From: Alphaproteobacteria bacterium | Lineage (GTDB): Bacteria > Pseudomonadota > Alphaproteobacteria > Micropepsales > Micropepsaceae | Reading direction: 5' to 3' | Assembly (NCBI GenBank): GCA_015654715.1 | Contig: JAATGK010000047.1 | Coordinates: forward strand, 1 to 22,481 | Length of the DNA stretch: 22,481 bases | Shown: positions 2,250 through 19,800 of the stretch, piece after piece | Layout of the letters: every line of letters starts with the position of its first letter | Position numbering within the stretch: position 1 is the first letter of the stretch | Position numbers and translations under genes: made by a program | The notes under the pieces: model-generated | The model's database searches: none | What the model was told of the DNA's origin: nothing | What the model saw: only the letters and a program-made list of their open reading frames with translations

Positions 2250-3458
2250 TTACAACTCTTGCCGAGAGAACAAATCGGATGGGGCCGGAGGTTCCAGCAG
2301 GAGCCGAAGATATTTCGACAGCCACACCGCATAAGCTGCCGCCCAAATAAACGCAGAAAGCTCGTAATGCAGTCCGAGCAAGCTCGTGAAGATGTTCTGC
2401 GCGGGCAAAACGCTCACGAAGCACGCAGTCATCGTCAAAGCGATTGCCACGCGCGCCTGCCACGGCAATTCCAGCGGCCGGCCGGTGTGACCGAGGCCGG
2501 TAAGACTGAAAACCGCAATGACGGCAAGCCCCACGCCGCCCAAGCCGAGAATATGTACGCCGACGCCAGCGGAAAAGGACATACCCAAACCTGCCAAGCC
2601 GATGACGATCAGCCCCACACCGGCAAGACAATTTGCCATAGCAAGGGCGAACACAGGACTCTTGAGAAAAATGCGACCGATGAACCATTCCGCGAGACGA
2701 TCCATGAACGCGCATCCGGCGGCAATGGCGAGAAAGGCGGGCGCCTGGGATCTTGGAAAGGCCAGAGCCACCAGCGCATATAGCGCGGTCATGACGGAAG
2801 CCAAATTCTGCCGACCGGGATGCGGCCGATAGGGCGAGGTTTCGCCGGAAGGATCAAGCGCAAGGTTCAGCACGGCAACATTGATTCGTCCGTATACAGA
2901 TGCCAAACCAATCACAAAGATCAGCAACGCAGTTTGTAAAAGCCGCGCCGAGAGTTCGAAATCCTTCGTGATCCAAGCGGCGCAAACAGCGGCTTCCGCT
3001 GCGCCAAGCAATACGATCCAGACAAGAGAAAATAAGTGTCTGCCCGATCGCCGCGCCAGCATCGGCCGAAGCACAAACCAGCCAAGCAAGGAGAGGTATG
3101 TCAGGTCGGTTGCGGTGGAAAACACGATAGCGATGTCGGCGCCCACGATGCCGGCCAATCGCCCAGCCAGCCATAACGCCAGCAGTAGCAACAAAGCCTT
3201 GCCTCGATTGGGCCTGGTGCCGGTCCCTTCAGCAACGGCCGACGTCAGCGCACCGCCTAACGCGGCCGCAAAAGTGCCGAAGATCATTTCGTGGAGCTGC
3301 CACTGCCCCAACGGGACCGACCGTGCAAATGGCAGTTGAAGTCCATAGAGGCAGGCCAACAGCAATGGCCCGATCATCGCATGGACGGCGGCGGCAGGGA
3401 AAAACAGCCGTTCGCCGCCGGCCAACAGATTTCTCCAGTTGCTGCGAAGGACATCCAT
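2250..3458 (-). CDS. nnrS: NnrS family membrane protein (haem/copper type)
   Basis: This is a 402-residue polytopic inner-membrane protein of the NnrS family. Characterised NnrS proteins bind haem and copper and are linked to nitric oxide metabolism or protection; the biochemical reaction is not settled. Support comes from a dozen or so hydrophobic segments over the whole length, the LHEMIFG motif near residue 57 in the first third, an LWLAGRLAG segment, and the diagnostic GHTGRPL near residue 336. It diverges at positions usually conserved: the common VPNWTG-type segment reads AVAEGTGTR, and the GGRVIP-type segment reads YGRINVAV. The start at 3458 (MDVLRSNW) is preferred over 3515 because the stop of the upstream ATPase gene and this ATG overlap as TGATG, which indicates translational coupling. 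It is the last gene of the TonB-ABC operon. No nitrite or nitric oxide reductase gene is present in the window. Confidence 0.82.
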   Translation of the reverse strand: MDVLRSNWRNLLAGGERLFFPAAAVHAMIGPLLLACLYGLQLPFARSVPLGQWQLHEMIFGTFAAALGGALTSAVAEGTGTRPNRGKALLLLLALWLAGRLAGIVGADIAIVFSTATDLTYLSLLGWFVLRPMLARRSGRHLFSLVWIVLLGAAEAAVCAAWITKDFELSARLLQTALLIFVIGLASVYGRINVAVLNLALDPSGETSPYRPHPGRQNLASVMTALYALVALAFPRSQAPAFLAIAAGCAFMDRLAEWFIGRIFLKSPVFALAMANCLAGVGLIVIGLAGLGMSFSAGVGVHILGLGGVGLAVIAVFSLTGLGHTGRPLELPWQARVAIALTMTACFVSVLPAQNIFTSLLGLHYELSAFIWAAAYAVWLSKYLRLLLEPPAPSDLFSRQEL

Positions 3459-4198
3459 CACAGGCACCGCCCTTCGCCATCGAACAGCTCCGCAAACACG
3501 GCATCCCGAGACCATCGTTCGACCAGATCGAATACCATGCGTTCGTCGCGTTCGCCGGGACGCCCGGGAACCGTGCGCACTTCGACGATGCCGCGATGGC
3601 GGCTCGACAGAACGGCAATCCGGTCGGCCACACGAACCGCCTCAACCAGGTCATGGGTGACGAACAGGCCGGAGAATCCTTCTTCGCGCGCCATGCGCAC
3701 CACAAGATCCTGCAATATCCGCTTCAATCCGACGTCGAGGGACGAAAATGGTTCGTCGAGATACATAATGTCGGGCTGCACCGCTAGGGCACGGGCGATG
3801 GCAACACGCTGACGCATTCCGCCCGACAGTTCCGCCGGATATTTGTTCCAATCCATTTGGCCGAGACCGACGGCACGCGCTTTGGCGGCGGCGACGTCGC
3901 GGCACCGCAGACGCGACAGGCCGCGTGGAACCAAGCCGTAAGCGATATTGTCGCGCGCACTGAGCCACGGCAGCAGGCGCGGCTCCTGAAAGACCATCGC
4001 ATGGCGGTTGTAGAGACGCCGCACGCGCCCCCGCAACGGATCGATCAAACCCACGGCGATCGCCAGCAACGTGGTCTTGCCGCACCCGGAAGGTCCAACC
4101 AGGGAAACAATTTCGCCATCGTTCAGGATGAGACTGACATCTTCCAACAGCGGGCGGCCGAGAAACCCATGACCGATTCCTTCGAGCGACAGCTTCAT
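3458..4198 (-). CDS. ABC transporter ATP-binding protein (nitrate/sulfonate/taurine class)
   Basis: This is a 246-residue ABC ATPase that powers the adjacent importer from the cytoplasmic face. Visible motifs are Walker A GPSGCGKTT (35-43), the Q-loop VFQEPRLLPW (Gln71), signature LSGGMRQ (124-130), Walker B MYLDEPFSSLD with catalytic Glu149, and the H-loop THD (His182). The EPRLLPW segment after the Q-loop is typical of SsuB/TauB/NrtD-like ATPases. An upstream in-frame start at 4438 exists, but its extension is the permease gene read in another frame. The ATG at 4198 overlaps the permease stop as ATGA and begins the ABC fold directly, so it is chosen. Its own stop overlaps the nnrS start by one base. 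The substrate cannot be told from the ATPase. Confidence 0.92.
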   Translation of the reverse strand: MKLSLEGIGHGFLGRPLLEDVSLILNDGEIVSLVGPSGCGKTTLLAIAVGLIDPLRGRVRRLYNRHAMVFQEPRLLPWLSARDNIAYGLVPRGLSRLRCRDVAAAKARAVGLGQMDWNKYPAELSGGMRQRVAIARALAVQPDIMYLDEPFSSLDVGLKRILQDLVVRMAREEGFSGLFVTHDLVEAVRVADRIAVLSSRHRGIVEVRTVPGRPGERDERMVFDLVERWSRDAVFAELFDGEGRCL

Positions 4199-4992
4199 GG
4201 CGCGGCATCCCGGGGCTGTCCGGCGCGACGCCAGCTTTCGAGACTTTCGCGCAACGGGTGGAGAATGCCGTAATCGGTGATGAGCGCGAACGTCGCCACG
4301 ATCACCGTCCAAGCGGTCACTTGCGGAATATCGAACATGGTGCGGGCGGTAGCGAGTTCGCCGCCGATGCCGCCGGCATTGGCCAGAAGCTCCGCCATGA
4401 CCGCGACTTTCCAGGCAGTGCCGGCCGTAATCGTCCACGCCGGAAAGAGATAAGAAAGCAGATGCGGCACGGTGATGGTGGCAAAACGGCGAAGCGGCCC
4501 GACACCGTAAACGCGCGCCATGGCATCGAGCGAACGGTCGCGCGTCGCCACCCCCTCAAGTGCACCGGCAAAGGAAATCGGCAAAGCCGCGACCGTCACG
4601 GTTATGACCGGTGTCGTCCCGGTGGCGCCAAACCAGATCATGACCAGGATGATCCACGAAATCTGCGGAACACTCAGAATGACCGCCACCACCGGTTTGA
4701 GCAATCTCATCGCGGCAACGGAATAGCCGGCGACCGCTCCTGCGAGCCCGCCGAGACCGGCGGCAAGCGCAAATCCCAGAAAGGTGCGCATGCAGGTTTG
4801 CGCCGCGACATCGCGAAAGACCGGTCCCTGCACAATTGTTGCAATCTCTGCAAAAGTGCGCAGCGGCGTCGGCAACACAAAACCGCCGTAGACTTCGCTG
4901 CCGAACTGCCAGAGCGCGAACAGGCAGAAAATGCCCGTTGCACTGGCCCATCCGCCCCAAAGATATCTTCCCAACCAACCGAGACGAGGCAT
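4195..4992 (-). CDS. ABC transporter permease (BPD_transp_1, SsuC-like)
   Basis: This is a 265-residue inner-membrane permease of the binding-protein-dependent class. About six hydrophobic segments are visible. The cytoplasmic EAA-type loop that contacts the ATPase is at residues 157-180, with the pattern A-x3-G-V-x9-T-V-P. The GTAWKVAVMAELLA segment is typical of SsuC/TauC/NrtB permeases. The gene starts 38 bases after the binding-protein gene and its last four bases overlap the ATPase start, so the three genes are one transcription unit. The ribosome site before the ATG at 4992 is weak, which would fit translation coupled to the upstream gene. It forms a homodimeric or heterodimeric channel with no other permease nearby, so a homodimer is inferred. 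The substrate is unknown. Confidence 0.9.
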   Translation of the reverse strand: MPRLGWLGRYLWGGWASATGIFCLFALWQFGSEVYGGFVLPTPLRTFAEIATIVQGPVFRDVAAQTCMRTFLGFALAAGLGGLAGAVAGYSVAAMRLLKPVVAVILSVPQISWIILVMIWFGATGTTPVITVTVAALPISFAGALEGVATRDRSLDAMARVYGVGPLRRFATITVPHLLSYLFPAWTITAGTAWKVAVMAELLANAGGIGGELATARTMFDIPQVTAWTVIVATFALITDYGILHPLRESLESWRRAGQPRDAAP

Positions 4993-5030
4993 GCTATCTC
5001 ATTTTCACAATAACGAGACCGACATCGCGG

Positions 5031-6014
5031 TCATAACGCGTAAAATCCGCCATCCGGAAGTTTACCGCCGATAATGCGCGTATCTTCCGCGGCAATAACC
5101 GAGAAAGATTTCTCCACCTCACGCCGAACCGAGGACGCCTTCAAGGCGCAGAGATTACTATGAGGCACCGCCTCCGCAAGCACCGGCGCAAGGATGCCGA
5201 GGTCCGGAAACTGAGACAAGGATATCTGGGATGGATGCGCCGAAACGTCATCGGCGGCGGCATGCAACGCCTCCTGCAAGACCACCAACCCGTTGTGACC
5301 GTATTTCTCGACGAACGTCCGCGTGACCGCCATCCCGGCCAGCGGCAGGATGCCATTCCCGCCCATAAGACGCGTCCATTCCGCCCGGCAATCGATCGCG
5401 CGTATCAGACGCCGGTCGCCGGATTTCGACCGCAGAATGGCGGTACTGATCGCGGGCTCATCCAACAACGCCGCCTCCGCGCGACCCGACAATAACATCT
5501 GAGCCGCCTCCAGTGGCGAACCGACATAGGTCAGCTGGATGTCCTTTCCGATCTGTAAGCCAGCCCGTTTTAACAGACTGCGCAACACGAAATCGGACAT
5601 GTTGTTATGAAAGGGAACAATCAGGTTCTTACCGACCAAATCGGCAAGCCGGTGACAGTCTTCGCCCGCAATGACGTACAAAAGGCCTCGCGTCAGCACG
5701 TTCACCAAAAGGACGCCAAGCCCCCGATTGTAGAAATTTGACGCCACATGCGTGGGAACGATGACCGCCTGCATGCCTCCCGAACTCAATCCGGCCTGCA
5801 AATCGTCCTGCGTCCGCCAGGCTTTGAAGGCGACCGGAACGCCCAGCTTATTGAGCGAACCGCTGGCGATGGCGTGCGCGAGGACGACGGAAGGCACCGC
5901 GGCCGGCCCCCACAGCGTCAGCGTCTCCGCCGCCATTGCCGCGCCAGATCCGGCGACGAGTGCCGAACTGCCCGTGATCAGAAACTTGCGCCTGTTCAAC
6001 ACCGTCAACTCCAT
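5031..6014 (-). CDS. ABC transporter substrate-binding protein, Tat-type signal (NMT1/SsuA-like)
   Basis: This is a 327-residue periplasmic binding protein of the nitrate/sulfonate/thiamine-precursor class. The N-terminus reads NRRKFLITG, then a hydrophobic stretch and an AMAAET cleavage region near residue 29, so a twin-arginine signal peptide is likely. Tat export suggests folding, possibly cofactor or metal acquisition, before export. The mature part alternates alpha/beta segments with a hinge-region motif around LLDEPAIS, as in class II binding proteins. An alternative GTG start at 6002 has GGAG six bases upstream and would give a shorter n-region while keeping the RR motif; the ATG at 6014 has a weaker site. 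The gene lies 48 bases after the TonB receptor and 38 before the permease. The ligand is not predictable by eye; a metal chelate, a tetrapyrrole or an organic sulfur or nitrogen compound are all open. Confidence 0.82.
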   Translation of the reverse strand: MELTVLNRRKFLITGSSALVAGSGAAMAAETLTLWGPAAVPSVVLAHAIASGSLNKLGVPVAFKAWRTQDDLQAGLSSGGMQAVIVPTHVASNFYNRGLGVLLVNVLTRGLLYVIAGEDCHRLADLVGKNLIVPFHNNMSDFVLRSLLKRAGLQIGKDIQLTYVGSPLEAAQMLLSGRAEAALLDEPAISTAILRSKSGDRRLIRAIDCRAEWTRLMGGNGILPLAGMAVTRTFVEKYGHNGLVVLQEALHAAADDVSAHPSQISLSQFPDLGILAPVLAEAVPHSNLCALKASSVRREVEKSFSVIAAEDTRIIGGKLPDGGFYAL

Positions 6015-6062
6015 TCCGTCTTGGATGCAACGAGAGCTTTCATCGGTTCGTGGAATCGATGA

Positions 6063-8369
6063 CTAGAACGCGACCTTAATGCCGGCGTAAAACGCCCGGC
6101 CATCACCAGGTTGGAAGGCGGCCTGATCGGCTCTGGCGGTGTCGGTGATAAGAGTCGATGAGGCATAGGTCTTGTCGAACAGGTTTTGAACCTCGCCGAA
6201 GACCGAAAGCATATCGTTGATCTTGTATTCCGTGCGCAGGCCGAAAATGGCATACGGATCAGAGAACAGGGTGTTCATATTGTCGACCGCCACCTTCTCG
6301 ATCGACCACGAGACCGAGGCCTGAACGGACCAATCCGGCAGCAGCCGGTATGACAGCGTCCCGTTGAGAAGGTGCGGCGGCGCACCGGCAAGAAGGTTAT
6401 TCTTCCGGGTGGGATCGTTCGAAAAGCGGAAATCCTGATAGGTATAGGTGATGCGGCCGGCCAAATCGTCGGTCAAATCGGCTCCCACCCCCAGTTCGAT
6501 GCCAAAATGGCGCGTCTTATCGGCATTTATCGCACCGATCGACGCGCCGGAGGCATCGCGCAGACTGAGCAGTTCGTCGTTGACCCAGGAATAATAGGAG
6601 ACGACATCCCAGTTCAAATCGTCGCTACGTCCCCGCCAGCCACCTTGAACCGTGGTCGCCGTCTGGGCCTTCAGATCGGGGGTCACGAAAGCCGCCGCCG
6701 CCAGCGTGGGGCTGGTCGGAGTTGGCCGGCCCGGACTGCTGTTGGGCGTGCCGTTGTAGGTTGCCAGCAAATCTTCATGGGTCGGCGGTTCGAAACTGCG
6801 GCTGCCTGCGACGAAGACCGTCTGGCCTTCCCCGAAATGATAGGTCAGTGCCAAGCTCGGCGACCAGCCTTCATAGGAGCGGGCATAACTGGTGCTGACG
6901 GCCGGGACGGCGCCATCCGGCAACGCTGACGTCGGACTGGCGGGTTTGTAAGCGATCGTCGGCCGGGTTGCCGCGCGATAAACATCGTCGTTGTCGCGCA
7001 TTGCATGCGCATAGACAATCGTCGGCGACAGGATCAGCCCTTGCATCAGCGGAATATTCAACCCGGCATCTAGAGAGAAGGTTTCGGCATCGAGATCGTT
7101 GGCGCCGAACTCCGCGCCTTTCTTGCCGGACCGATTGAGAAAGTAGGTCCGATCCGCCGAGCCCGCCGCATATTGCGCCGCCCCCTCGAACAGGGGAAGC
7201 AGCGCATTGTCGTCAGGCTTGTAAGCATAGCGAACCACACCGATACCATCCCCGCCGTTAGTGACCCGCACACCGGACGTGATGGGAAAGCGGAACGTAT
7301 CTTCGGTATAGGTGTAACCGCCGATCAGATCGAAGAAATGAGGACCATACACGGCCGTCGTTCGGGTGCCGATCTGATATTGCGCGGTGTCGCGGCGCGG
7401 TGTGTCGCGCACGACGTTCGGGCCGGGATTGATCGCGGCGCCGGACGCGGTCACCGTGGGACCAGTGAAGGATTGTCTCGGGTCCGCCTTCATGCCGTCC
7501 TTGGTCAGAGGCCCGGCGACCTCGAAGCCGAGATCGGTGTAGCCGGCAAAGAAGCGCGTCGTCACGTTGTTCGCCCAATCGATGCCGACGTTGCCGTTCA
7601 CGGCAATGCGATTTGAATCGTTGTAGTCGCGAAAGCCGTCGCGGCGCTGGAAATCGACTTGCAGCAGCCCGTCGACACCGTCGCCGGCCCCGCCGACCTG
7701 CCCGTAAATATTCGCCTGGCCAAAACTGCCGCCACTCGCCACGACCTTCATGCCCGGCGCCGCTGCGCCGGTCGGCGAAAGGAAATTCAGCGCCCCGCCA
7801 AGCACCGTGGCGCCAAGCCGGTTGGACATGTAGCCGCGATAAACCTCGATGCTGCTGGCCATCTGCGGATCCGCAAGACCGACCGTGTAGGAGCCGTCGG
7901 CGCGATTGATCGGCAGACCGTTGAGGAGGATGAGAACCCCGCGTTCGACCGGGCTCTGTTGCAGGCCCGAACCGCGAATCTGCAACCGCGGCTGATCGTT
8001 ACCGCCGAAGAATTGCCGGACAATCACCCCCGGGGCGTTCCCAAGCGCAGAGGCAAGCGTCGGACTGCCCGCCGACACAGCATCATCCGCCGTCACTACG
8101 GAAACGCCACCAGGAAGCGCTGCGAGCGTAGCGCTGGAGGACACCTCTTCGCGCGTCGCCGAAACCACGACGGTTTCCTTCAACGCCGTTCCAGGAGCAA
8201 CCGATTGGGCAAATCCAGCCTGACAGACTGCGGACAGGCACAGCACCGGAAAAATACGGCCAAGCGTCTTGCTCAATAGAAGTATTGCGGTTGAAGCCTT
8301 CAAGGAGGAACGAACGGCAGCGACGTCTCTTTGCCCGGATGAAGCAGTGTCAAACCCAATGCAGCGCAT
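6063..8369 (-). CDS. TonB-dependent outer-membrane receptor (first gene of the ABC/NnrS operon)
   Basis: This is a 768-residue outer-membrane receptor for TonB/ExbBD-energised uptake. A long n-region and a hydrophobic segment end near AGFAQS (residues 51-56), giving a signal peptide. A TonB-box-like ETVVVSATR follows at 65-73, then a plug with RLQIRGSGLQ and VLILLNGLPINRADGS. The beta-barrel ends in the canonical last strand AFYAGIKVAF with terminal Phe; NLFDKTY is the usual near-C-terminal motif. The start at 8369 is preferred over the in-frame GTG at 8396 because AGGGG lies 5 bases before it. The plug motif LLNGLPINRADGSY and the LGATVLGGALNFLSPTG segment resemble receptors of the FecA-like side of the family more than vitamin B12 receptors; this is a weak inference. 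Its position 48 bases before a binding-protein gene argues that the imported compound is handed to that ABC importer. Confidence 0.9.
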   Translation of the reverse strand: MRCIGFDTASSGQRDVAAVRSSLKASTAILLLSKTLGRIFPVLCLSAVCQAGFAQSVAPGTALKETVVVSATREEVSSSATLAALPGGVSVVTADDAVSAGSPTLASALGNAPGVIVRQFFGGNDQPRLQIRGSGLQQSPVERGVLILLNGLPINRADGSYTVGLADPQMASSIEVYRGYMSNRLGATVLGGALNFLSPTGAAAPGMKVVASGGSFGQANIYGQVGGAGDGVDGLLQVDFQRRDGFRDYNDSNRIAVNGNVGIDWANNVTTRFFAGYTDLGFEVAGPLTKDGMKADPRQSFTGPTVTASGAAINPGPNVVRDTPRRDTAQYQIGTRTTAVYGPHFFDLIGGYTYTEDTFRFPITSGVRVTNGGDGIGVVRYAYKPDDNALLPLFEGAAQYAAGSADRTYFLNRSGKKGAEFGANDLDAETFSLDAGLNIPLMQGLILSPTIVYAHAMRDNDDVYRAATRPTIAYKPASPTSALPDGAVPAVSTSYARSYEGWSPSLALTYHFGEGQTVFVAGSRSFEPPTHEDLLATYNGTPNSSPGRPTPTSPTLAAAAFVTPDLKAQTATTVQGGWRGRSDDLNWDVVSYYSWVNDELLSLRDASGASIGAINADKTRHFGIELGVGADLTDDLAGRITYTYQDFRFSNDPTRKNNLLAGAPPHLLNGTLSYRLLPDWSVQASVSWSIEKVAVDNMNTLFSDPYAIFGLRTEYKINDMLSVFGEVQNLFDKTYASSTLITDTARADQAAFQPGDGRAFYAGIKVAF

Positions 8370-8627
8370 AATCACCCCTTTTAGCTTCGTTCGCACTCTT
8401 CTAAAACTTCGACATATTAACGTCAGTGCGTCTTACTTGCATTTTCAGCGAAAAAACGCACATCGACGTGTTGGACACACACCAAGCCATTGAACCCGTT
8501 ATCGCTGCCCGGTCAGTCGCCCGGACGTCCGTATCCGATGGCGGGCTCGAACATCTCGAAATGCGGGCTGGGCGGAGAAAAGCGAGAGACGGGGAACACC
8601 GCTTCGGGCACCGGGTGATGATCGACA
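8370..8627. other. Intergenic region between divergent TonB receptor and hipB-like genes
   Basis: No gene is supported here. On the minus side are the AGGGG ribosome site of the TonB receptor and an AT-rich TAATAT near 8415 that could be a -10 element, with no good -35. An inverted repeat TTGG (8471-8474) / CCAA (8482-8485) spans 15 bases; its odd spacing does not match the 14-base FNR/NNR box. I saw no Fur-, Zur- or CueR-like site. The start of the plus-strand promoter and operator region is described separately. Confidence 0.4.
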
Positions 8628-8641
8628 TTCCCGCTCGGTAA
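8628..8641. promoter_or_regulatory. Upstream operator copy of the hipB-like gene
   Basis: TTCCCG-CT-CGGTAA is an inverted repeat with one mismatch. It is the near twin of the perfect copy 49 bases downstream; the surrounding ATTCCCGCTCGG is identical in both. It lies just upstream of the candidate -35. Paired palindromes around the promoter are the usual arrangement for autoregulation by HipB-type antitoxins, so binding by the gene's own product is inferred. Confidence 0.6.
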
Positions 8642-8649
8642 AATTGGCC

Positions 8650-8678
8650 TCGACAAACGGCCAAAACCCGTCAATATT
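8650..8678 (+). promoter_or_regulatory. Candidate promoter of the hipB-like gene
   Basis: TCGACA (8650-8655, one mismatch to TTGACA), a 17-base spacer and AATATT (8673-8678, two mismatches to TATAAT) lie between the two operator copies. The downstream operator overlaps the -10 by two bases, which would let a bound repressor block RNA polymerase. Confidence 0.45.
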
Positions 8679-8690
8679 CCCGCTCGGGAA
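8677..8690. promoter_or_regulatory. Downstream operator copy, perfect palindrome overlapping the ribosome site
   Basis: TTCCCG-CT-CGGGAA is a perfect 6+2+6 inverted repeat. Its right arm CGGGAA is also the likely ribosome-binding sequence, 7 bases before the ATG at 8698. The centre lies 49 bases from the upstream copy, close to but not exactly five helical turns. Confidence 0.65.
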
Positions 8691-8697
8691 ATTCGCC

Positions 8698-8913
8698 ATG
8701 ACGCCAAAAGACCTCGGAACTGCTATTCGCGCCGCCCGCCATCAGCAAGGCCTGCGTCAGGATCAATTGGCCGCCGCCGCAAAGGTCGGCGTGCGCTTCA
8801 TCGTTGATCTGGAAGCCGGCAAGCCGACCGCCCAGATCGGCAAGGCGCTCGCAGTGCTCAAGGCTCTTGGCCTCGAAGTGATCCTAGAGGCCACTGCAAT
8901 AGATCAGCCCTGA
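8698..8913 (+). CDS. HipB/Y4mF-type helix-turn-helix antitoxin, apparently orphan
   Basis: This is a 71-residue Xre-family DNA-binding protein like the antitoxins that repress hipBA operons and neutralise HipA kinases. The sequence reads as a single HTH_3 domain: helix 1 around LGTAIRAARHQQ (6-17), the turn-helix LRQDQLAAAAKVG (19-31) and recognition helix VRFIVDLEAGKPT (32-44). The tail after ALGLEVIL is short, as in Y4mF proteins. The start at 8698 is preferred over the TTG at 8644 because the domain begins directly there and the earlier start would place the promoter and operator inside the coding region. Two palindromes around the promoter suggest autorepression. The expected hipA partner is only a remnant downstream. 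The gene is transcribed away from the TonB operon and toward the minus-strand SDR gene. Confidence 0.8.
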   Translation: MTPKDLGTAIRAARHQQGLRQDQLAAAAKVGVRFIVDLEAGKPTAQIGKALAVLKALGLEVILEATAIDQP

Positions 8914-9113: not shown

Positions 9114-9857
9114 CTAGTCGGCGGTGGCGCCACCATCGACGGCAAGCGCCACGCCATTGATGAAGGCAGCTTCATCGCTGGCAAGATACACTGCCGCGTT
9201 GGCGACGTCGGCCGCGGTGGCCAGATGTCCCATCGGAATTTCGCCGAGACGTTCGGCCCGGCGCTGGGGATCCTTCAGCATCTCGCGTACGAAAGCGGTC
9301 TCCACCGTCGAAGGATGGATCGAGTTGCAGCGGATGTTGTCCTTGCCGTAGCGCACCGCGATCGACTTGGTGAGCAGCGTCAGGGCGCCCTTGGTGGTGG
9401 TGTAGGTCTCGTTGGTATAGGCGTGGCCGATCAGGCCGCACACCGACGACATGTTGAGGATGACGCCGCCGCCCGCTTTGCGCATCACCGGCAACGCGTG
9501 CTTGATGCCGATGAATGGCCCCTTCACGTTGACCGCCAACATCGCCTCGAACGACTCGATCGGCATTTCTTCGATGTTCTTGCGAACATTGATGCCTGCG
9601 TTGTTGATCAGGATATCGAGGCGGCCCGCTTTGGCGATGACGGCCGCAATCGCGCCCTTCCAGGCCTCTTCCGAGGTCACGTCGAGGAGCACAAACACGG
9701 CGCCGAGCGAGGCCGCGGTGGCCTCGCCCTGCTCTTTCGTCACGTCGGCAATGAACACCGTCGCGCCTTCCTCACGGTAGCGCTTGGCGATTGCAGCGCC
9801 GAGACCACCAGCAGCGCCGGTGATCAGGGCAACCTTGTCTGCAAGACGACCGCTCAC
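9114..9857 (-). CDS. SDR family oxidoreductase, last gene of the transketolase-garR operon
   Basis: This is a 247-residue classical short-chain dehydrogenase acting in the cytoplasm. Visible elements are TGAAGGLG (13-20), an Asp after the second strand (Asp38 in FIADV) that favours NAD over NADP, NNAG (85-88), Ser138 in NMSS, and Tyr152-x3-Lys156 in YTTTK. The GAAGGLG/IADV and SSVCGLIG segments resemble catabolic NAD-dependent alcohol dehydrogenases of the cyclopentanol/hydroxysteroid dehydrogenase side. The start is GTG at 9857, overlapping the garR stop as GTGA, with AAGGGGG six bases before it. Its place after garR suggests it oxidises a hydroxyl of the substrate, or of an intermediate, before or after the transketolase step. 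It could equally make hydroxypyruvate or a keto-sugar acid. The substrate is not readable. Confidence 0.87.
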   Translation of the reverse strand: MSGRLADKVALITGAAGGLGAAIAKRYREEGATVFIADVTKEQGEATAASLGAVFVLLDVTSEEAWKGAIAAVIAKAGRLDILINNAGINVRKNIEEMPIESFEAMLAVNVKGPFIGIKHALPVMRKAGGGVILNMSSVCGLIGHAYTNETYTTTKGALTLLTKSIAVRYGKDNIRCNSIHPSTVETAFVREMLKDPQRRAERLGEIPMGHLATAADVANAAVYLASDEAAFINGVALAVDGGATAD

Positions 9858-10750
9858 TTTAAGCCCCCTTTGCGAACCTTGATGCCGGCCAGCTTTTCAT
9901 AGAATTGGATCAAGCCACCATGGTCTTCGCCGGCTTTGCCGTCGACCTTCATAGCCTGCATGAACTCCATCACCGCACTGGTCAGCGGCACCGGCGTGCC
10001 AGTGCCGTGCGCCGTATCGAGAGCGTTCTGCAGATCCTTGATGTGCAGTTCGATTCGGAAGCCAGGCTTGTAATTGCCTTCCAGCACCATCGGCGCCTTG
10101 GCGTTCAGCACCGTCGAACCGGCAAGGCCGCCTTTGATGGCGTTGAAGACCTTCTCGGGATCGACACCGGCTTTAGTCGCCAACACAAAGGCTTCCGACA
10201 TCGCCGCAATGTTGAGGGCGACGATCATCTGGTTGGCCAGCTTGGTGACGTTACCGGCACCGATATCGCCGCACAACACGACGCTGCCCGCCATCTTCGA
10301 AAGGACGTCTTTGACCTTGTCGAAAACGGCTTGCTTGCCGCCGACCATCACCGACAACGTGCCGTCGATCGCCTTGGGCTCACCACCGGAGACCGGCGCA
10401 TCGATCATCTCGATGCCCTTCTTCGCCAGCGCTTCGTAGAGTTCGCGGCTGGCAAGCGGGGCAATCGAGCTCATGTCGACAACAATCGAACCGAGCTTGG
10501 CGCCTTCGATGACGCCGTTTTCGCCCAGCACCGCCGTCTTCACATGCGGTGAGTTCGGCAGCATCGTGATGATGAGTTCACTCTTCGAAGCCACGTCCTT
10601 GGGCGAAGTGCCCGCCGTCGCGCCCGCCTTCACCAGTTCGGCCACAGGCGCCGCCACGACGTCATAAACGACGAGGCTATAACCCGCCTTCAAAAGGTTC
10701 TTCGCCATGGGCTTGCCCATAATGCCCAGGCCGACAAAGCCGATATTCAT
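9854..10750 (-). CDS. garR: 2-hydroxy-3-oxopropionate (tartronate semialdehyde) reductase
   Basis: This is a 298-residue beta-hydroxyacid dehydrogenase that reduces tartronate semialdehyde to D-glycerate with NAD(P)H in the cytoplasm. The N-terminal Rossmann motif is GLGIMGKPM (7-15). The substrate loop is DAPVSGGEPK (117-126) and the catalytic Lys170 lies in GAGNVTKLANQ. Long runs such as ITMLPNSPHV, SSIAPLASRE and GGLAGSTVL match the GarR subgroup from memory, so it is GarR/GlxR rather than a 3-hydroxyisobutyrate dehydrogenase. The ATG at 10750 follows the transketolase C-subunit stop by one base, with AGGAAA before it; the 3' end overlaps the SDR start by four bases. Neither a glyoxylate carboligase nor a hydroxypyruvate isomerase gene is in the window, so the origin of tartronate semialdehyde is open. 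Confidence 0.93.
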   Translation of the reverse strand: MNIGFVGLGIMGKPMAKNLLKAGYSLVVYDVVAAPVAELVKAGATAGTSPKDVASKSELIITMLPNSPHVKTAVLGENGVIEGAKLGSIVVDMSSIAPLASRELYEALAKKGIEMIDAPVSGGEPKAIDGTLSVMVGGKQAVFDKVKDVLSKMAGSVVLCGDIGAGNVTKLANQMIVALNIAAMSEAFVLATKAGVDPEKVFNAIKGGLAGSTVLNAKAPMVLEGNYKPGFRIELHIKDLQNALDTAHGTGTPVPLTSAVMEFMQAMKVDGKAGEDHGGLIQFYEKLAGIKVRKGGLK

Positions 10751-10751
10751 G

Positions 10752-11690
10752 TCACTTTCCTTTTAAAAGTGTCTTGGCGGTTGCTGCAATCGCCGCTGAC
10801 GTCAGGCCATAGCGCGCCATCAGGCCGTCATAACCTTCGGCCGACATGCCGAACGTGTCGGGAACACCGACGAATTCCACCGGCGCATGGCTGACGCTGC
10901 GCAGCGCCTCCATCACCGCGGATCCGAGACCGCCAATCAGCGAATGCTCCTCGGCCGTAACGATGGCATCGACACCGGCCGCGTAACGGACGATCGCCTC
11001 GCGGTCGAGCGGCTTCAGGGTCGAGACGTTGATCACCCGCACCGAAATGCCGTCCTTCTCCAACTCAACCGCCGCTTCAAGCGCCTTCGACACCATAATG
11101 CCGGCGCCGAAGATCGCGACGTGTTTGCCGTCGCGGATCTTGGTGACCTTGCCGATGTGGTAAGGCTCATCGACCGGTGTCACAAACGGCAGATCATTGC
11201 GGTTGATGCGGATGTAGACGGGGCCTTTCCAGTCGAGCAGCGCGTCCATCATCTTTTCGCATTCGATGGAATCGGCCGGACAGATCACAGCCATGTTCGG
11301 GATCGCCCGCATCAGCGCGACGTCTTCGATGCTCTGATGGGTCTTGCCGTCGCCGAAATCGGACAGACCGGCGCTGGAGCCGCAGATCCGGACGTTGAGG
11401 TTCGGAATGCAGATCGAATTACGCAACTGATCATAGGCGCGACCGGTAGCAAAGACGGCAAAGGAGTGGACGAACGGGATCATCCCGGCGAGCGCCATGC
11501 CGGCGGCCGTGGACGTCATGTCCTGTTCCGCGATTCCCATTTGGAAATAGCGGTCGGGGAACTCGGCCTGGAACATCACCGACTGGGTGGATTTGCCGAG
11601 GTCGGCCTCTAGAGCCATGACGCGCCAGTCTTTGCGGCCCAGTCGGACAAGGCTTTCGCCATAGGCAGTTCTCAAATTTGCCGCGGTCAT
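10752..11690 (-). CDS. Transketolase, C-terminal subunit (split type)
   Basis: This is a 312-residue protein with the pyrimidine-binding and C-terminal domains of a transketolase. It pairs with the neighbouring N-subunit to form the thiamine-diphosphate enzyme that moves a two-carbon ketol unit. The activating glutamate is Glu55 in the MGIAEQDM motif; HSFAVFATGRAYDQ and the GDGKTHQSIEDVALMRAIPN loop are typical of transketolase subunits. The ATG at 11690 is chosen over the upstream in-frame start at 11930 because it overlaps the N-subunit stop as ATGA and has AGAGGAA six bases before it. Split transketolases occur as dedicated catabolic enzymes, for example AptA/AptB acting on apulose 4-phosphate and SqwGH in sulfo-sugar breakdown. 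The garR neighbour here differs from both known settings. Confidence 0.92.
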   Translation of the reverse strand: MTAANLRTAYGESLVRLGRKDWRVMALEADLGKSTQSVMFQAEFPDRYFQMGIAEQDMTSTAAGMALAGMIPFVHSFAVFATGRAYDQLRNSICIPNLNVRICGSSAGLSDFGDGKTHQSIEDVALMRAIPNMAVICPADSIECEKMMDALLDWKGPVYIRINRNDLPFVTPVDEPYHIGKVTKIRDGKHVAIFGAGIMVSKALEAAVELEKDGISVRVINVSTLKPLDREAIVRYAAGVDAIVTAEEHSLIGGLGSAVMEALRSVSHAPVEFVGVPDTFGMSAEGYDGLMARYGLTSAAIAATAKTLLKGK

Positions 11691-12526
11691 TGCAGATTCC
11701 TCTTGGCTTCCGCGATTTCGGCAAGCGCCTGATCGTATTGTGGCTTGGTGAGCGAGGCGTTGTGGAACGCGGAGGTGTTTTCGGCGAAGGAAATGCCCTT
11801 GCCCTTGACCGTCTCTGCGATCAGCACGGTGGGAACGCCCTTGGTCGCCGTGGCCGTGTCGAGCGCATCGAGAATCGCGCCGACGTCGTGACCCTCGACG
11901 CTGAGGACATTCCATCCGAACGCCCGCCACTTGGCTTCGAGATTGGGAATGTCGAAGATGTCTTTGGTCGCACCGGTCGCCTGGAAGTGGTTGCGATCGA
12001 CGATGCCGGTGACCGAATCCAGCTTGTAGCGGGCCGCCGCCATCGCGGCTTCCCAGATCTGGCCTTCGGCGATTTCACCGTCGCCCATGACGACGTACAC
12101 GTGCGCCGGACTCTTGGCGTAACGCAGCGCGAGCGCCATGCCGACGCCGATCGAAAGCCCCTGGCCGAGCGAGCCGGTGACGGCTTCCATGCCGGGGGTC
12201 TTCATGTCGGGGTGGCCCTGCGGCTTGCCCTTAAGCGTCTTGAGGCCAGTGATATCCTCGCGCGGAATGATGCCAAGCTCGATGAGCGACGCGTACTGGA
12301 TCGGAACCGTGTGTCCCTTGGAGAGCAGGAAGCGATCGCGGTCCTTGTTGGTGTAGTCCTTGGGATCGAAGTTCATTTTCGAGAAGTACAAGGACGCCGC
12401 AATTTCGGCGAGCGAACACGAACCGCCGATATGGCCTACCTTGCCGACACCGATCATCTGGACGACGTCGGCTCTGAGGTCGCACGCGATTTTTGCAATC
12501 CTCCGGATTTCGTTAGGCTTTGCCAT
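11687..12526 (-). CDS. Transketolase, N-terminal subunit (split type)
   Basis: This is a 279-residue protein carrying the thiamine-diphosphate binding half of a transketolase. The GDG-E-x27-N cofactor motif is at 148-179 (GDGEIAEGQIWEA ... DRNHFQ). Other typical segments are GHIGGSCS (31-38), LLSKGHTVP (67-75) and TGSLGQGLSIGVGMA (117-131). The start at 12526 (MAKPNEIRR) is preferred over the ATG at 12541 because a strong GGGAGGAA lies 5 bases before it. It is the first gene of the operon and faces the 674-base divergent regulatory region. It needs the C-subunit encoded directly downstream for activity. Compared with housekeeping transketolase (one chain of about 660 residues), the split form and operon context point to a dedicated sugar catabolism role. 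Confidence 0.92.
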   Translation of the reverse strand: MAKPNEIRRIAKIACDLRADVVQMIGVGKVGHIGGSCSLAEIAASLYFSKMNFDPKDYTNKDRDRFLLSKGHTVPIQYASLIELGIIPREDITGLKTLKGKPQGHPDMKTPGMEAVTGSLGQGLSIGVGMALALRYAKSPAHVYVVMGDGEIAEGQIWEAAMAAARYKLDSVTGIVDRNHFQATGATKDIFDIPNLEAKWRAFGWNVLSVEGHDVGAILDALDTATATKGVPTVLIAETVKGKGISFAENTSAFHNASLTKPQYDQALAEIAEAKRNLQ

Positions 12527-12682
12527 TCGCGTTCCTCCCATGCAGTTTTCTCGATCCTTGTTTCATCTGAACCTCACTCTCCGAATGGCGCACTCGACAC
12601 GCTTTCAATGTGGCAGTTAGTGCGGAGGGACTGCTCCAAACCTCGGCCTTGTATGAGGCTGTCTCTCGAACAAACGCAGATA

Positions 12683-14544: not shown

Positions 14545-15042
14545 TGCGAGCTTTGCCAGCACGATGGACCAAACGCCGTCGGCTTTGACGTAATCGATCG
14601 TCAGAACGCGCGCTTCGGTCCGGCGAACAAAACCACCACCCTGCAGATGTGCCATCCGCGCCAACGTACATGTCGGCGCGATAGGTGTCTCAAGTTCGAC
14701 CGCGCAATGGAACCTTCCGGTTGCACGTTTCCCGCCGGCAGCAATCTCGATTTCGTCCGTCGGCCCCACCTGGTTCGCCATAATGCTGCGGATTTTGTCC
14801 CCGACCGCCACGGCATCGGGATTCAACCGCGGCAGTCCCCTACGGAGCATCGTCTCTGCATTGGCGTTGCGCATCCAGGTTTGATGTAGATCGCGAAGGG
14901 CACGCTCGTCCTCGAGCTGCGCCAAACGGGCTTTGGAACCGTCGCTTGCGAGCGCCGCACCGGACATCGCTGCCAACGGCGCGGCGAGCATGGCCCCAGC
15001 CTTCAGAAAGTAGCGCCGGCTCGACATATCGTTCTTGGTCAT
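14530..15042 (-). CDS. SnoaL/NTF2-like protein with Tat signal peptide, exported
   Basis: This is a 170-residue protein. The N-terminus MSSRRYFLKAGAMLAAPLAAM followed by ASDGSK is a clear twin-arginine signal with SRRYFLK and a cleavage region near residue 37, so the protein is exported folded to the periplasm. The mature part starts with a helix LAQLEDERALRDLHQTWMRNAN and ends with beta strands such as ARVLTIDYVKADGVWSIVLAKL, the pattern of the SnoaL-like/NTF2 cone fold. That fold serves as small-molecule isomerase, lyase or hydratase, or only binds ligands. The ATG at 15042 has GGGGAGGA 4 bases before it and overlaps the MoaF-like stop as ATGA. Last gene of the TonB operon. No catalytic residues can be assigned; a Cys at the centre (TPIAPTCTLAR) is notable. 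Confidence 0.75.
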   Translation of the reverse strand: MTKNDMSSRRYFLKAGAMLAAPLAAMSGAALASDGSKARLAQLEDERALRDLHQTWMRNANAETMLRRGLPRLNPDAVAVGDKIRSIMANQVGPTDEIEIAAGGKRATGRFHCAVELETPIAPTCTLARMAHLQGGGFVRRTEARVLTIDYVKADGVWSIVLAKLATTLV

Positions 15043-16751
15043 GCCGTCCTCCCCGACCGGTTCACCTGGAAAAAGCGCGCGATGTCGTAATGGCCAACGT
15101 GGCGGCCCAAGGCACCGACCGGGTCCATCTTGATCCCGTCGTTCTTGTCGCACATGAGGCCAATGCCGGCATCGTGCATGGTGTTCAGATTGACAAGAAT
15201 GGTGCCGAGCGCGCCGTTGCACGCCTCTTCAAGCCAATAGGCGAAATACAGGCCTTCGCGGATTTTGACGTAGGCTGCGGAGCCGCTCCACTGCATGCCA
15301 CCGGCGCCGCTCTCCGTGAAGATCACCCACGACGCAGAATACGGCGTGGTATAGACGTGCATCGATGTGAGACCGGGCGAATACTCCCAGCTGATCGCAT
15401 GGCCGACCAATTCGTCGGTGAAGTGATGGCGCCGGTACGCCGGCGGAATGATTCCCTCCATCTCGACAACACCGAACAACGTCTTGGCACCGGATTCATT
15501 GGCGAAATACGGCGTGTTGAAGAAGCCGTTGTAGCAGGTGACGAGCCCCTGGTCGAAATCGACGCAAATCGAATGGCCGTCGTGGTTGGGCTCGCCTTCC
15601 AGCAAGTGGCCGAACAGGATCACGCCGGGTGTCGATTCCCACGCGTGGTAGCGCGTCTTGATCCAGCGCTTGCTGCCCTCTTTGCGCCAATGCAGGGTCT
15701 CGCGTTCGTCGATGCGGTATTCCATCGCCGGCGCGTTGTCGTAGCGTAGCGTGAAACTCTTGCCGACGAGATAGTCCGTGATTGGATCGCCGTTACCGGC
15801 CATGTCGGTATGCATAATAAAGGCCGTCTTGCGCGCGGCGGCCACTTCCGATTTGGACATGATTTCCCACGTCTTCAGCGGTCGGTAGACGGCGCGGGCG
15901 CCCTTGGCGAGCGGCTTGCCGTCCTCGGCCCGCGGCGGCACCACATCGCCTTTGACGTCGCCGAACTTCTCGAAGTGGGCAATCTGGCCAACCCATTCGC
16001 CCTTGCCGCGGAACACATAGTATTCCAGCGCATCTTCGGCATTGAACCCGAGCCGCAAGCCGGCCTGCTCGATATGATTCAGATCGATCACATAGAGCGT
16101 AAAAATGCCCGAAAATTCGCATTCGGTCCGGGTATAGATGAAATATTCGGTATCGATCTTGATGTAGTCGGAAGGCGCGCAATACCCAAGTTCACCGCCA
16201 AGACGGGACATCTCCACCCACAGCGAATAGGCGGCCGAGGGATAGAGGTCCAGCGTCTCGATGCCGTTATCCTGCGTCCAGTGATAGCCGTGGCCTTCCA
16301 TCCGGTTGGTCGCGATGTGGCGCGCTTCGGCCGGCTTCTTACCGGATTTCTCGACATAGCCGTGATAGATTTCGCGCTGGACCTCGCGTTTGTCCTCATA
16401 GCCGCTGAACCACAGTTCGAAAACCGTGACGAGATCGGTTTTCTGGTCGACGATCACGGCGTAGCCGCGCTGCGTGCCAGGGATGAGATGCGAGAACACC
16501 GCCACGCGGCCGAGCGCCTGGGCGCCGTAACCGGCCTCCACCGTCGCGCCGCCATTCTCGGACACCGTTAGGCGGCTATTGCCGCGGAAGCTGTAGCTGA
16601 GCTTGAGGCCCTTGTCGGTGGCAATATTGAGCGATTTGCCAGCGAAGACATCTGAAAGCGGAGAGGCACTTGTCGGCCCGCCGGACACAACTTTGCTCAA
16701 CTTGCTCTCGATATCTCTCGCCGAAAGCTTGCTATACGCGATGCGATGCAT
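15039..16751 (-). CDS. MoaF-like protein with two tandem MoaF units
   Basis: This is a 570-residue protein made of two repeats of the MoaF architecture, about twice the usual length of roughly 270. Unit 1: an N-type lipocalin-like domain (about 38-150, with the GYAVIVDQKTDLVTVFELWFSG core) and a C-type domain (about 155-275, with DTEYFIYTRTE and FTLYVIDLNHIEQAGLRLGF). Unit 2: N-type (about 325-440, core HSICVDFDQGLVTCYNGFF) and C-type (about 445-555, HHFTDELVGHAISWEYS, then GLYFAYWLEE and TILVNLNTMHDAGIGLM). Strand-for-strand the last halves of both units align: Y-F-x-Y then a V/L-x-L-N-x-M/I stretch. MoaF was named from a molybdenum-cofactor locus but has no proven role there; the family is calycin-like and probably binds or transforms small molecules. 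No signal peptide is evident. The ATG at 16751 has a weak ribosome site. The gene overlaps the exported SnoaL-like gene by four bases. Confidence 0.72.
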   Translation of the reverse strand: MHRIAYSKLSARDIESKLSKVVSGGPTSASPLSDVFAGKSLNIATDKGLKLSYSFRGNSRLTVSENGGATVEAGYGAQALGRVAVFSHLIPGTQRGYAVIVDQKTDLVTVFELWFSGYEDKREVQREIYHGYVEKSGKKPAEARHIATNRMEGHGYHWTQDNGIETLDLYPSAAYSLWVEMSRLGGELGYCAPSDYIKIDTEYFIYTRTECEFSGIFTLYVIDLNHIEQAGLRLGFNAEDALEYYVFRGKGEWVGQIAHFEKFGDVKGDVVPPRAEDGKPLAKGARAVYRPLKTWEIMSKSEVAAARKTAFIMHTDMAGNGDPITDYLVGKSFTLRYDNAPAMEYRIDERETLHWRKEGSKRWIKTRYHAWESTPGVILFGHLLEGEPNHDGHSICVDFDQGLVTCYNGFFNTPYFANESGAKTLFGVVEMEGIIPPAYRRHHFTDELVGHAISWEYSPGLTSMHVYTTPYSASWVIFTESGAGGMQWSGSAAYVKIREGLYFAYWLEEACNGALGTILVNLNTMHDAGIGLMCDKNDGIKMDPVGALGRHVGHYDIARFFQVNRSGRTA

Positions 16752-16882: not shown

Positions 16883-19800
16883 TCATTTGGCCACGTCGAC
16901 CAAGCCGATCGAATAGAGGGCGCGGTTCGTGAGGATATATAACGTCTGCCGATTGGCCCCGCCGACCACCACTTGAAGCGGCCGATCCGGCACGTCGACG
17001 CGTCCCAACTCGCGGCCGTCGGGCGCGTAGACGTAGACCTGACCGTTCGCCAGATAGACCCGGCCGGCCGCATCATGGGTGACGCTTTCGCCGCCGCGGT
17101 CGACGAATTTTTTCAGATCGGTGAGCGTGCCGCCCTTGCCGAGTTTGCCGCTATAGGTTCGTCCTTCCGACGAGTTGGCGACGTAAATCCGCTCGCCCGC
17201 ACGAGCCACATTGAGGCCGTAGGCGTCGAGCGAATGCGAGAACCGCCAGCCGCGATAATCCGGCGTGCCCTGCGCGACCGTGGTATAGGCCGGCAGCACC
17301 AGACTTCCGTCCGGCGACACGAACTCTTTGCGCGGCGCGGACGCTGCATCCTTCGCGAACATCTCGGCCAGCGTCGTGAAGTGGTCCTTCGCCGGATCGT
17401 ACTGATCCTTGAACTGACCATCGCACCACCAGTTGCCTGGCATAGCGATGGCCGCCCGTGCATTCGGCCCGACCGGTGTTGCTGCGATCACCTTGGGCGA
17501 ACCGCCGACGTCGAGGCTGAACACTGAGCCTTCGGGTCCAGCCGAGGACACCACCATGACATTGCCGGAATTGTCCACGGCGAGATTGACCGGATCGAGG
17601 GTGTGATCGCTGAGGATGTTGAGCCCCTCGCCTTCCGACCAGCGGTAGATGCGCTGGGCGATGCGGTCGGCGAAGTAGAGATTGCCCTTGGCGTCGACCG
17701 CTCCGCCCGAGATCGCCGAGAAGCCGGCGGCTACCTTCTTGAGCTTGGCGTTTTCCGGCGGGGGCGCAGACGGCTTGCTGGTCACGTCCAGCATGGCGAA
17801 CTGGCGATCGCGCACCATCGTGCCGCGGCTGACGTCTTCAATGGAATTCTCGAACGGATACTTATTGGCCCTGAGATACGTTATGCATTCACCGTCCTTG
17901 CACCCGGTGTAGCCGTGCTCTGCGTTCATATGCACGTTGCGGAAGCGGATATCGCGGACATTGTAGAGCTGCGCCGCGGCGACCATCGGACCGGACGTAC
18001 GCGTCACGCGGAAAGCGCGATAATTCGCGATCAGGATGTTGATGGAATCGCGGATCTCGAACGAAATGGCAGAACGGCTTTCGCCAGACTCCTCTTCGGT
18101 CTGCGGCGCGAGCAGCTCCCAGTTGGACACCCGCGACATCACGATCTCGGTACGGGGATGATGTTCGATCGAAGCCTGGTAGACATGACCTGGCGTTGCT
18201 GTATCCGAAATATAGAATCCTGCCTCGGCGAAGGTATTAGGGCACCAGAAACCGTTGAAGGTGCCGCCGCCGTTCTTGGTGACCCAAAGACTCGGGTAGG
18301 TGCCGCCCCAGCGCTTCGCGGTATCGGGATCGGCGCTGCGATTGTTGTTGAAGATCGGGAAGCCCATCGCGTGGTCGACGTCGCCACCGGGGCGGCCGAA
18401 GAAGCGCACGTCGTCGAGCAGCGACTTCTCGCCCGCCATCCACAGCAACGTCGTGACGCGCGGATTGAGGCCGCCGCCGAACAGTCCGAGACCGGAGACG
18501 ATCGCATCGCCGCCCTCGGCGGTCTGGATCATGGCCTTGGGTTCGCCGATACCTTGAAAGCCCGGCGTGCCTTCGGTTAGCACGATCTGCGTCAGCGAGG
18601 GATGCAGACCGATGAGAACCGTGTCCGGCTTCAGACGGATGGTATTGCCGACGCTGTAGATGCCGGCGGGAAAATAGAGCGTACGGTGGGTATCGATCGC
18701 CCTTTGGAGCGCCGCTGTGTTATCCGTCTTGCCATCGCCGACAAGTCCGAGATCGTGCACATTCGCCCAATCGCCGACGGACGGCAGGTCGCGGATCGCA
18801 GGCGCCCGTTCAGCCGGCATGGCGTCAATCGCCGCGATATCGCTGCGGGTCTCGTACTTGCCGACCTGCCCGACTTCCGGAATCGCCAGACCGTAATTGA
18901 ACGACTTGACGCGATAGGCACCTGCCTTGCCGTCAACGGTCCGTCCGCTGTCGCGGAAGCGCGCGAAAACCGGCGTATCGGCAGCGAGCGCATTGTCGAA
19001 GCCGATTTGTGTAAACGCAATGTTCTCCTGGGAGATAACGATCGCGGCCTGACGCACCTGTTCAAAGCGAACGTCTTTTCCCCAAAGCTGATCGCTGTAG
19101 CCTTTGTCGATCTCGATTCCGACCGGCACGTCGCGCATCGCGACATTGACCAGAGTGAGTCCCGTCTCATGTTCGCGAATGGCGGCTGCGCGCTGGCCGT
19201 CGAACGTCGAATCGATGACCAGGAAGGGCCACGCGGGTGGTGTCTTTTCGGTCACGAGGCCATAACGGCCGCCGTGAAAATGGACGTCCCGCACGACATT
19301 TCCACCCTGGTAGACACCGGCGAAGCCGGAACCAAGGTGCATGTCCATGTGGCTGAGAATGGCATGTTGGGCGACGCGAAAGCGGATCGCCGTGGCGGCG
19401 GAATTGCCCGCACCAATCTCCACGTTGATATTGCTCATCGAGGAGAAAAACGTGCCCTGGTGGCCGTCGAGAATCTTGGAATCGAACGGCACCGAACCGG
19501 GCGGCGGGAACGGAACCGCTATTGGCAGCCGCGGGGCGCCAGCGAACACCACCATATGGGCGATGCCGCGTTGGAAACCTGGTGTGTGATCTTTGAGAAC
19601 CAGAACCGGGCGCGTCGGCCCGGTCCCGAAGACCCGGACGCCGGGCCAGATATATATGGTCCGGCTAATCCGGTAACGACCTGAGGGTAGAAAGACGATA
19701 CCACCGCTCGCCTTCGCCGCGCGATCGATCGCTCCCTGAATGGATTTGGTATCGTCCGCCTGTCCGTCGCCGCGACCAACCATCGTACCAGTATACGGAT

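What the first reader, a model, noticed from the sequence alone, without database searches (positions are those of the whole stretch)
2250..8369. A TonB receptor, complete ABC importer and NnrS in one overlapping operon
Five minus-strand genes run TonB receptor, 48 bases, Tat-type binding protein, 38 bases, permease, ATGA overlap, ATPase, TGATG overlap, NnrS. This gives a full path from outer membrane to cytoplasm and ties it by translational coupling to a haem/copper-type membrane protein. NnrS is usually discussed with denitrification, but no nitrite or nitric oxide reductase gene, and no FNR/NNR-type box, is seen here. One model is import of a metal chelate or tetrapyrrole that NnrS uses or senses. 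Another is import of an organic nitrogen or sulfur compound with NnrS guarding against reactive nitrogen. The Tat signal on the binding protein would suit a ligand bound before export.
Basis: partly seen in the sequence, partly recalled or inferred. Interest (0 to 1): 0.72.

Follow-up and report, generated by a model that had tools for sequence, protein, structure and literature searches.

The report
NnrS-linked importer of NO-respiring bacteria
Five neighbouring genes form a conserved unit that appears to pull a scarce small molecule into the cell and tie that uptake to a haem-protein relative of nitric oxide reductase; the unit recurs in many denitrifying bacteria, and what it carries is unknown.

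Summary
In detail: TonB receptor, Tat-type binding protein, permease, ATPase and NnrS, with the stated gaps and overlaps. It is a real conserved unit: 79 of 80 genome loci found with a binding-protein alignment carry binding protein, permease, ATPase and NnrS in that order (the 80th contig ends after the binding protein), and 45 of 80 have the receptor within 6 kb. In 101 Paracoccus genomes the receptor occurs in 7, all among the 9 with the binding protein. The linked NnrS is a separate subfamily: PEWTD replaces PNWTG, two conserved histidines are lost, one gained. Its AlphaFold2 model has the fold of the NO-reductase/cbb3 catalytic subunit. The family is tied to nitric oxide: FNR/NnrR-type boxes near 45 of 86 first genes, 6.5 expected; 36 of 50 system genomes have nirK or cNorB. 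The window copy has no box, no detected nirK or cNorB in an incomplete genome, and a lost conserved histidine. Nearest solved relatives include the PQQ proteins PqqU and PqqT, but the PqqU signature is not met. Best guess: uptake of a small organic anion or its metal chelate; ligand unproven.

The parts
6063..8369 (-). TonB-dependent outer-membrane receptor; nearest solved relative is PqqU/YncD (about 25% identity), PQQ signature not met
5031..6014 (-). Substrate-binding protein, NitT/TauT (SsuA/NMT1) fold, Tat-type RR signal
4195..4992 (-). ABC permease, SsuC/TauC/NtrB type
3458..4198 (-). ABC ATPase; ATGA overlap with the permease
2250..3458 (-). NnrS of the importer-linked subfamily, ATG start in the TGATG overlap; haem-copper-oxidase/NO-reductase fold in the model; first His of WHxHEM is Gln here
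4195..4198 (-). ATGA start/stop overlap, permease-ATPase (an overlap in 75 of 85 loci)
3456..3460 (-). TGATG stop/start overlap, ATPase-NnrS (an overlap in 75 of 85 loci)
8370..8720 (-). Region upstream of the operon: no TTG-N8-CAA box, unlike 45 of the 86 loci tested

Best explanation
A conserved uptake-plus-NnrS module. Shown: gene order, overlaps, co-inheritance of receptor and importer in Paracoccus, a dedicated NnrS subfamily, and association with nitric-oxide/low-oxygen type regulatory sites. Inferred: the receptor pulls a scarce, small (PQQ-sized), probably anionic organic molecule, free or as a metal chelate, across the outer membrane; the Tat-exported binding protein hands it to the ABC importer; the co-translated NnrS, a haem protein of NO-reductase-like fold, works beside the importer in the inner membrane when NO is present, shielding the imported ligand or the iron and haem that depend on it, or passing electrons to or from it. 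In this organism the module has lost the usual regulatory box and one conserved histidine, so its NnrS may work differently or more weakly.
Against: Ligand untested; PqqU signature not met and PqqT pocket pair not kept. 35 of 80 loci have no receptor within 6 kb, only 3 of them with under 3 kb held upstream; 2 of 9 Paracoccus with the binding protein lack the receptor at 1e-60. 14 of 50 system genomes showed neither nirK above cut-off nor strong cNorB, though nirS and qNOR were not sought and several are drafts. 41 of 86 loci have no exact box. The window genome has neither gene nor box. Joint function of NnrS with the importer is inferred from operon structure only; Foldseek E-values for the NnrS fold are above 0.001.
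Confidence: 0.5

Rival explanations
1. Metallophore or copper/iron-chelate importer that feeds metal to NirK, NosZ, cbb3 or haem enzymes under denitrifying conditions, with NnrS as the haem/copper user or sensor.
For: Neighbours in some loci: pseudoazurin (Martelella), cytochrome c oxidase and Fe-enterobactin importer genes (Shinella), haem uptake genes and a metal P-type ATPase (Cereibacter); a distant relative of the binding protein in P. denitrificans sits with TonB receptors, a methyltransferase and ABC exporter-type genes; the receptor also hits siderophore- and haem-receptor models, below their cut-offs.
Against: No conserved Cys or Met in receptor or binding protein at 95%, two conserved His in the receptor only; neighbours vary between genera.
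Confidence: 0.25
2. Importer of PQQ itself (a PqqU-PqqT type system).
Against: PqqU signature residue Y99 is Pro in 49 of 49 and R304 is Thr/Ser in 49 of 49 (signature from PMC12124388, passages seen); PqqT Y161-W162 align to Asp/Ser-Glu; 3hn0, whose ligand I do not know, is the closer relative of the binding protein.
Confidence: 0.08
3. Ordinary sulfonate, taurine or nitrate-type importer with NnrS only as an NO guard placed in the same operon.
For: The permease and ATPase hit Ssu, Tau, Ntr and similar models among others.
Against: All curated equivalog cut-offs shown were missed; such systems are not usually paired with a TonB receptor (recalled); the linked NnrS is a separate subfamily and 48 of 50 genomes have a further NnrS match.
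Confidence: 0.13
4. Chance adjacency in this genome.
For: Binding protein absent from the 95 other genomes of the order searched.
Against: Same gene set in 79 of 80 loci elsewhere.
Confidence: 0.01

Closest known systems
NnrS (PF05940) of denitrification and NO-stress regulons
   Same: Family hit E 1.4e-61; shares conserved His 303 and 325 and several W and R; NnrS is NO-regulated elsewhere (PMC1274295 and PMC6710368, passages seen)
   Different: PEWTD for PNWTG, two conserved His lost and one gained, joined by gene overlap to an ABC importer; window copy also lacks the first His of WHxHEM
Haem-copper oxidase / nitric oxide reductase catalytic subunit (NorB, CcoN)
   Same: Fold of the predicted model over most of its length
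   Different: No detectable sequence relation to one NorB (hhalign probability 0.7%); about 10% identity; ligand histidines not shown to match
PqqU (YncD) PQQ receptor
   Same: Closest solved TonB receptor, about 25% identity; R365 kept, basic residue at K274
   Different: Y99 and R304 not conserved in any of 49 receptors
PqqT and SsuA/TauA/NMT1-type binding proteins
NitT/TauT ABC importers (SsuBC, TauBC, NtrBCD)
   Same: Permease and ATPase class
   Different: Below the curated equivalog cut-offs shown; adds a TonB receptor and NnrS

Membership tests
NnrS (PF05940) | Score above Pfam gathering cut-off | tested here: met
   209 bits against 28
NnrS (PF05940) | PNWTG-type segment and the His set common to other NnrS of the same genomes | tested here: not met
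   Linked subfamily: PEWTD; His at P0001 positions 160 and 274 lost, 214 gained; window also lacks His 55. The family membership rests on the cut-off; this marks a subfamily
NnrS (PF05940) | Bound haem and copper | not testable with these tools
   Described for NnrS in passages seen (PMC4417242); not measured here
Haem-copper oxidase superfamily | Fold of the catalytic subunit | tested here: met
Haem-copper oxidase superfamily | Six ligand histidines in TM2, TM6, TM7 and TM10 (recalled) | tested here: inconclusive
   WHxHEM lies in the model helix 50-79, and H302/H324 (P0128 numbers) at the ends of helix 297-324; no residue-level superposition available
Haem-copper oxidase superfamily | Sequence relation | tested here: inconclusive
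   hhalign of A3 to one NorB: probability 0.7%, E 0.08
PqqU | Y/F/W99, R304 and R365 signature | tested here: not met
   P, T/S and R in 49 receptors
PqqU | NCBIfam NF041535 cut-off | tested here: not met
   107 bits against 1200
PqqT | Aromatic pair Y161-W162 | tested here: inconclusive
   HMM alignment puts Asp/Ser-Glu there; about 20% identity; their contact with PQQ was not checked
NitT/TauT-type ABC importer | Binding protein, permease and ATPase of this class | tested here: met
Tat substrates | Twin-arginine motif in the signal | tested here: met
   NRRKFL in the window; RR-type motif in 82 of 86 loci; export not tested

The most novel reading that the evidence does not exclude
NnrS is a divergent branch of the haem-copper oxidase/NO-reductase fold, and in this module it has been recruited as a dedicated partner of a TonB-ABC importer, its metal-ligand set remodelled so that it processes or protects the imported molecule (for example by reduction or removal of bound NO) rather than acting as a free-standing NO-stress protein.
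Probability: 0.25. Interest if true: 0.82.

Novelty: new variant of a known kind. Interest (0 to 1): 0.62.

Why it matters
NnrS has been an NO-response protein without an agreed function (from the passages read). Linked importers in 79 of 80 loci found, a defined subfamily with its own residues, and a model with the NO-reductase fold give three direct handles: identify the ligand of the binding protein, test the histidines, and test whether importer and NnrS act together. The importer may also be an unrecognised feature of denitrifiers, which govern N2O release.

Tried and rejected
Chance adjacency: rejected. PQQ as ligand: suggested by nearest solved relatives, weakened by the signature test. 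Recent-island idea from base composition: operon GC 0.605 against 0.607 elsewhere in the window, no signal. Mis-binned contig: the HrpB flank is 78-86% identical to four same-genus genomes and 58% or less in the class genomes that matched, but 20 of 24 other same-genus genomes gave no match at 1e-40; synteny next to the operon could not be read because relatives' contigs were short or did not match there. FNR/NnrR box in the window: none upstream; an exact word at 5986-5999 lies in the binding-protein coding start and the window total matches chance. Sigma-70 and terminator scans were at shuffle level. NnrS homology to NorB by profile: not significant. PHROGs and Rfam gave nothing useful. First gene-neighbour clustering was spoilt by shadow ORFs and replaced by a codon-scored one. 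First extraction of other NnrS failed and was replaced, where one of 53 'other' rows (L034) is a mis-split cassette copy and some rows are the same gene fetched twice. The gap test ignored in-frame stops and was replaced. Context of distant binding-protein relatives did not fix the ligand. Literature: searches showed no paper on this module in the listings seen (one search listed 40 of 170, one search listed 10 of 607, most of them off the subject) nor in passages of nine NnrS-mentioning papers; other listed papers were not opened. Subscription papers are mostly not held, and no search was made for a link between NnrS and the oxidase fold.
Full report
What is there. The five minus-strand genes are as described: receptor 6063-8369, 48 bases, binding protein 5031-6014, 38 bases, permease 4195-4992, ATGA, ATPase 3458-4198, TGATG, NnrS 2250-3458. 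The window is contig C303 of a 3.13 Mb, 518-contig assembly, 74% complete, with one detected NnrS. The HrpB flank at the left end fits the genus: 78-86% identity in 4 of 24 other same-genus genomes (20 gave no match at 1e-40), 56-58% in the five other class genomes that matched.

Is it conserved. The binding protein was absent at 1e-5 from the 95 other genomes of the order that were searched. In a class sample of 289 (the window genome included), five matched at 1e-20: the window genome; one with the full four-gene cassette beside genes that look like nar genes by eye (G257, L143); and three weaker matches in a different context, with no importer genes directly beside them (in L140 another binding protein and permease lie about 8 kb away). 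A search of genome contigs with a binding-protein alignment kept the best 80 of 161 loci. Of these 80, 79 have binding protein, permease, ATPase and NnrS in that order; in the 80th (L076) the contig stops just after the binding protein. In L018 NnrS appears in two ORF pieces and in L034 it shares one long ORF with the ATPase region. The search used no NnrS information. Forty-five of 80 have the receptor within 6 kb. Layouts over 86 loci (these 80, five plasmid loci and the window): receptor first 35, receptor between permease and ATPase 9, receptor reversed upstream 4, receptor downstream 1, no receptor 36, binding protein alone 1. Junctions in 85 loci: permease-ATPase overlap 75, 0-20 bases 1, no start found 9; ATPase-NnrS overlap 75, 0-20 bases 7, more than 20 bases 3; binding protein-permease overlap 35, 0-20 bases 34, more than 20 bases 13, none found 3.

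Do the receptor and importer belong together. In what the answers show as the same 101 Paracoccus genomes (P. denitrificans genus, evenly drawn), the binding protein is in 9 and the cassette-type receptor in 7 at 1e-60. All 7 are among the 9; none of the 92 others has it; Fisher 2e-9. In one genome (G464) the two lie on different contigs. Related genomes are not independent, so the p-value is only a guide.

Which NnrS is it. From the system loci and genomes I aligned 85 cassette-type NnrS with 53 other rows, one of which (L034) is a mis-split cassette copy and some of which are one gene fetched twice. Cassette copies read PEWTD where the others mostly read PNWTG (IPNWTG 21, VPNWTG 18 of 53). 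The Gly at P0001 position 81 (51 of 53 others) is Asp in 78 of 85. His at 160 (49 of 53) is Arg in 73 of 85; His at 274 (50 of 53) is Ala, Met or Gly in 78 of 85; His at 214 is in 85 of 85 cassette copies and in at most 5 of 53 others. His 303 (53 of 53, 85 of 85) and 325 (51 of 53, 85 of 85) are shared. One branch separates all cassette copies with support 1.0 (FastTree). Window NnrS and its closest relative P0129 (77% identical) carry Gln for His 55, which is His in 82 of 85 and 51 of 53; since both share it, a sequencing error is unlikely. The window copy also has VAEGTG. Forty-eight of 50 system genomes searched hold at least one further NnrS match; two (G385, G395), and the window genome, show only one. 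Twenty-two of the 85 comparison loci have a second NnrS within the fetched stretch, and in a Martelella plasmid the order is pseudoazurin, cassette, second NnrS, NnrU (reversed), Rrf2.

Link to nitric oxide. TTG-N8-CAA occurs in -350..+60 of the first gene in 45 of 86 loci against 6.5 expected from other windows of the same loci; nine of the 45 lie at or inside the ORF start because ORFs were taken to their furthest start. The NnrR consensus ctTTGcgnnnncgCAAag is from PMC1274295 (passages seen). An Rrf2-like gene occurs in 16 of 86 loci, at distances from about 0.4 to 9 kb; the representative is Rrf2 by Pfam, and the four scanned score best to RirA or NsrR models, below those cut-offs; only some have the three-Cys pattern. 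Neighbours in single loci include nor, nap and NnrU (Agrobacterium) and, in Paracoccus and Bosea, DUF1971 with an FmdE-like protein. Copper nitrite reductase is above cut-off in 26 of the 50 system genomes searched and cNorB at 1e-40 in 26 (one weak, 33% identity); 36 of 50 have nirK or strong cNorB, 14 neither; nirS, qNOR and nosZ were not searched. The 50 were chosen by me from 80 for genus spread. Background cNorB in the class sample is 8 of 289 (one weak), a sample not matched for lineage. Within Paracoccus, cNorB is in 9 of 9 with the system and 45 of 92 without (p 0.0025). The window genome shows neither gene, but is only 74% complete.

How it most likely works. Shown: one conserved operon, often with an NnrR/FNR-type word near it; co-inherited receptor in Paracoccus; a dedicated NnrS branch. 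Inferred: uptake of the ligand through receptor, binding protein and ABC importer; NnrS acting next to the importer as a haem protein under NO. What NnrS does to the ligand, if anything, is unknown. In this organism the module appears detached from denitrification and its NnrS has drifted.

Novelty. No paper describing the module came up in eight searches, in the listings seen and in passages of nine papers, of a library without most subscription journals. The parts are known; the fixed combination and the NnrS subfamily appear undescribed there.

Noticed in passing
window 8644-8913 (+): A small HTH_3/XRE-type gene lies divergent to the operon, with a TTCCCG-N2-CGGGAA palindrome near its start and a repeat of the half-site; a possible local regulator of the operon.
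   Followed up: partly
window 9114-12541 (-): SDR, 3-hydroxyisobutyrate-type dehydrogenase and a split transketolase pair lie upstream of the operon; the transketolase pair also occurs near the cassette in Azospirillum TSH58 (L006) and a Xanthobacteraceae MAG (L010), 3 of 86 loci.
   Followed up: partly
window 8485-8471 (-): Inverted repeat TTGG-TGTGTGT-CCAA upstream of the receptor, spaced unlike an FNR box.
   Followed up: no
L140-L142, around the binding-protein match: Three distant binding-protein relatives with no importer genes directly beside them sit between genes that look, by eye, like Mrp-type antiporter and CO-dehydrogenase accessory genes.
   Followed up: partly
L144:20-13076: A second, distant binding protein-permease-ATPase set in P. 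denitrificans with a methyltransferase, two TonB receptors and two ABC exporter-type genes.
   Followed up: partly
L007 (Cereibacter azotoformans plasmid): The cassette lies on a predicted conjugative plasmid near anaerobic haem-degradation and haem-uptake genes and a metal P-type ATPase.
   Followed up: no
window 15039-16751 and 16883-19960 (-): A 570-residue MoaF-domain protein and a 1025-residue pectate-lyase-like protein ending in a gluconolactonase-like domain.
   Followed up: no
L022:6088-6729 and L004:10861-11481: An FmdE-like protein (below cut-off) between Rrf2 and DUF1971 genes near the cassette in Bosea and Paracoccus.
   Followed up: partly
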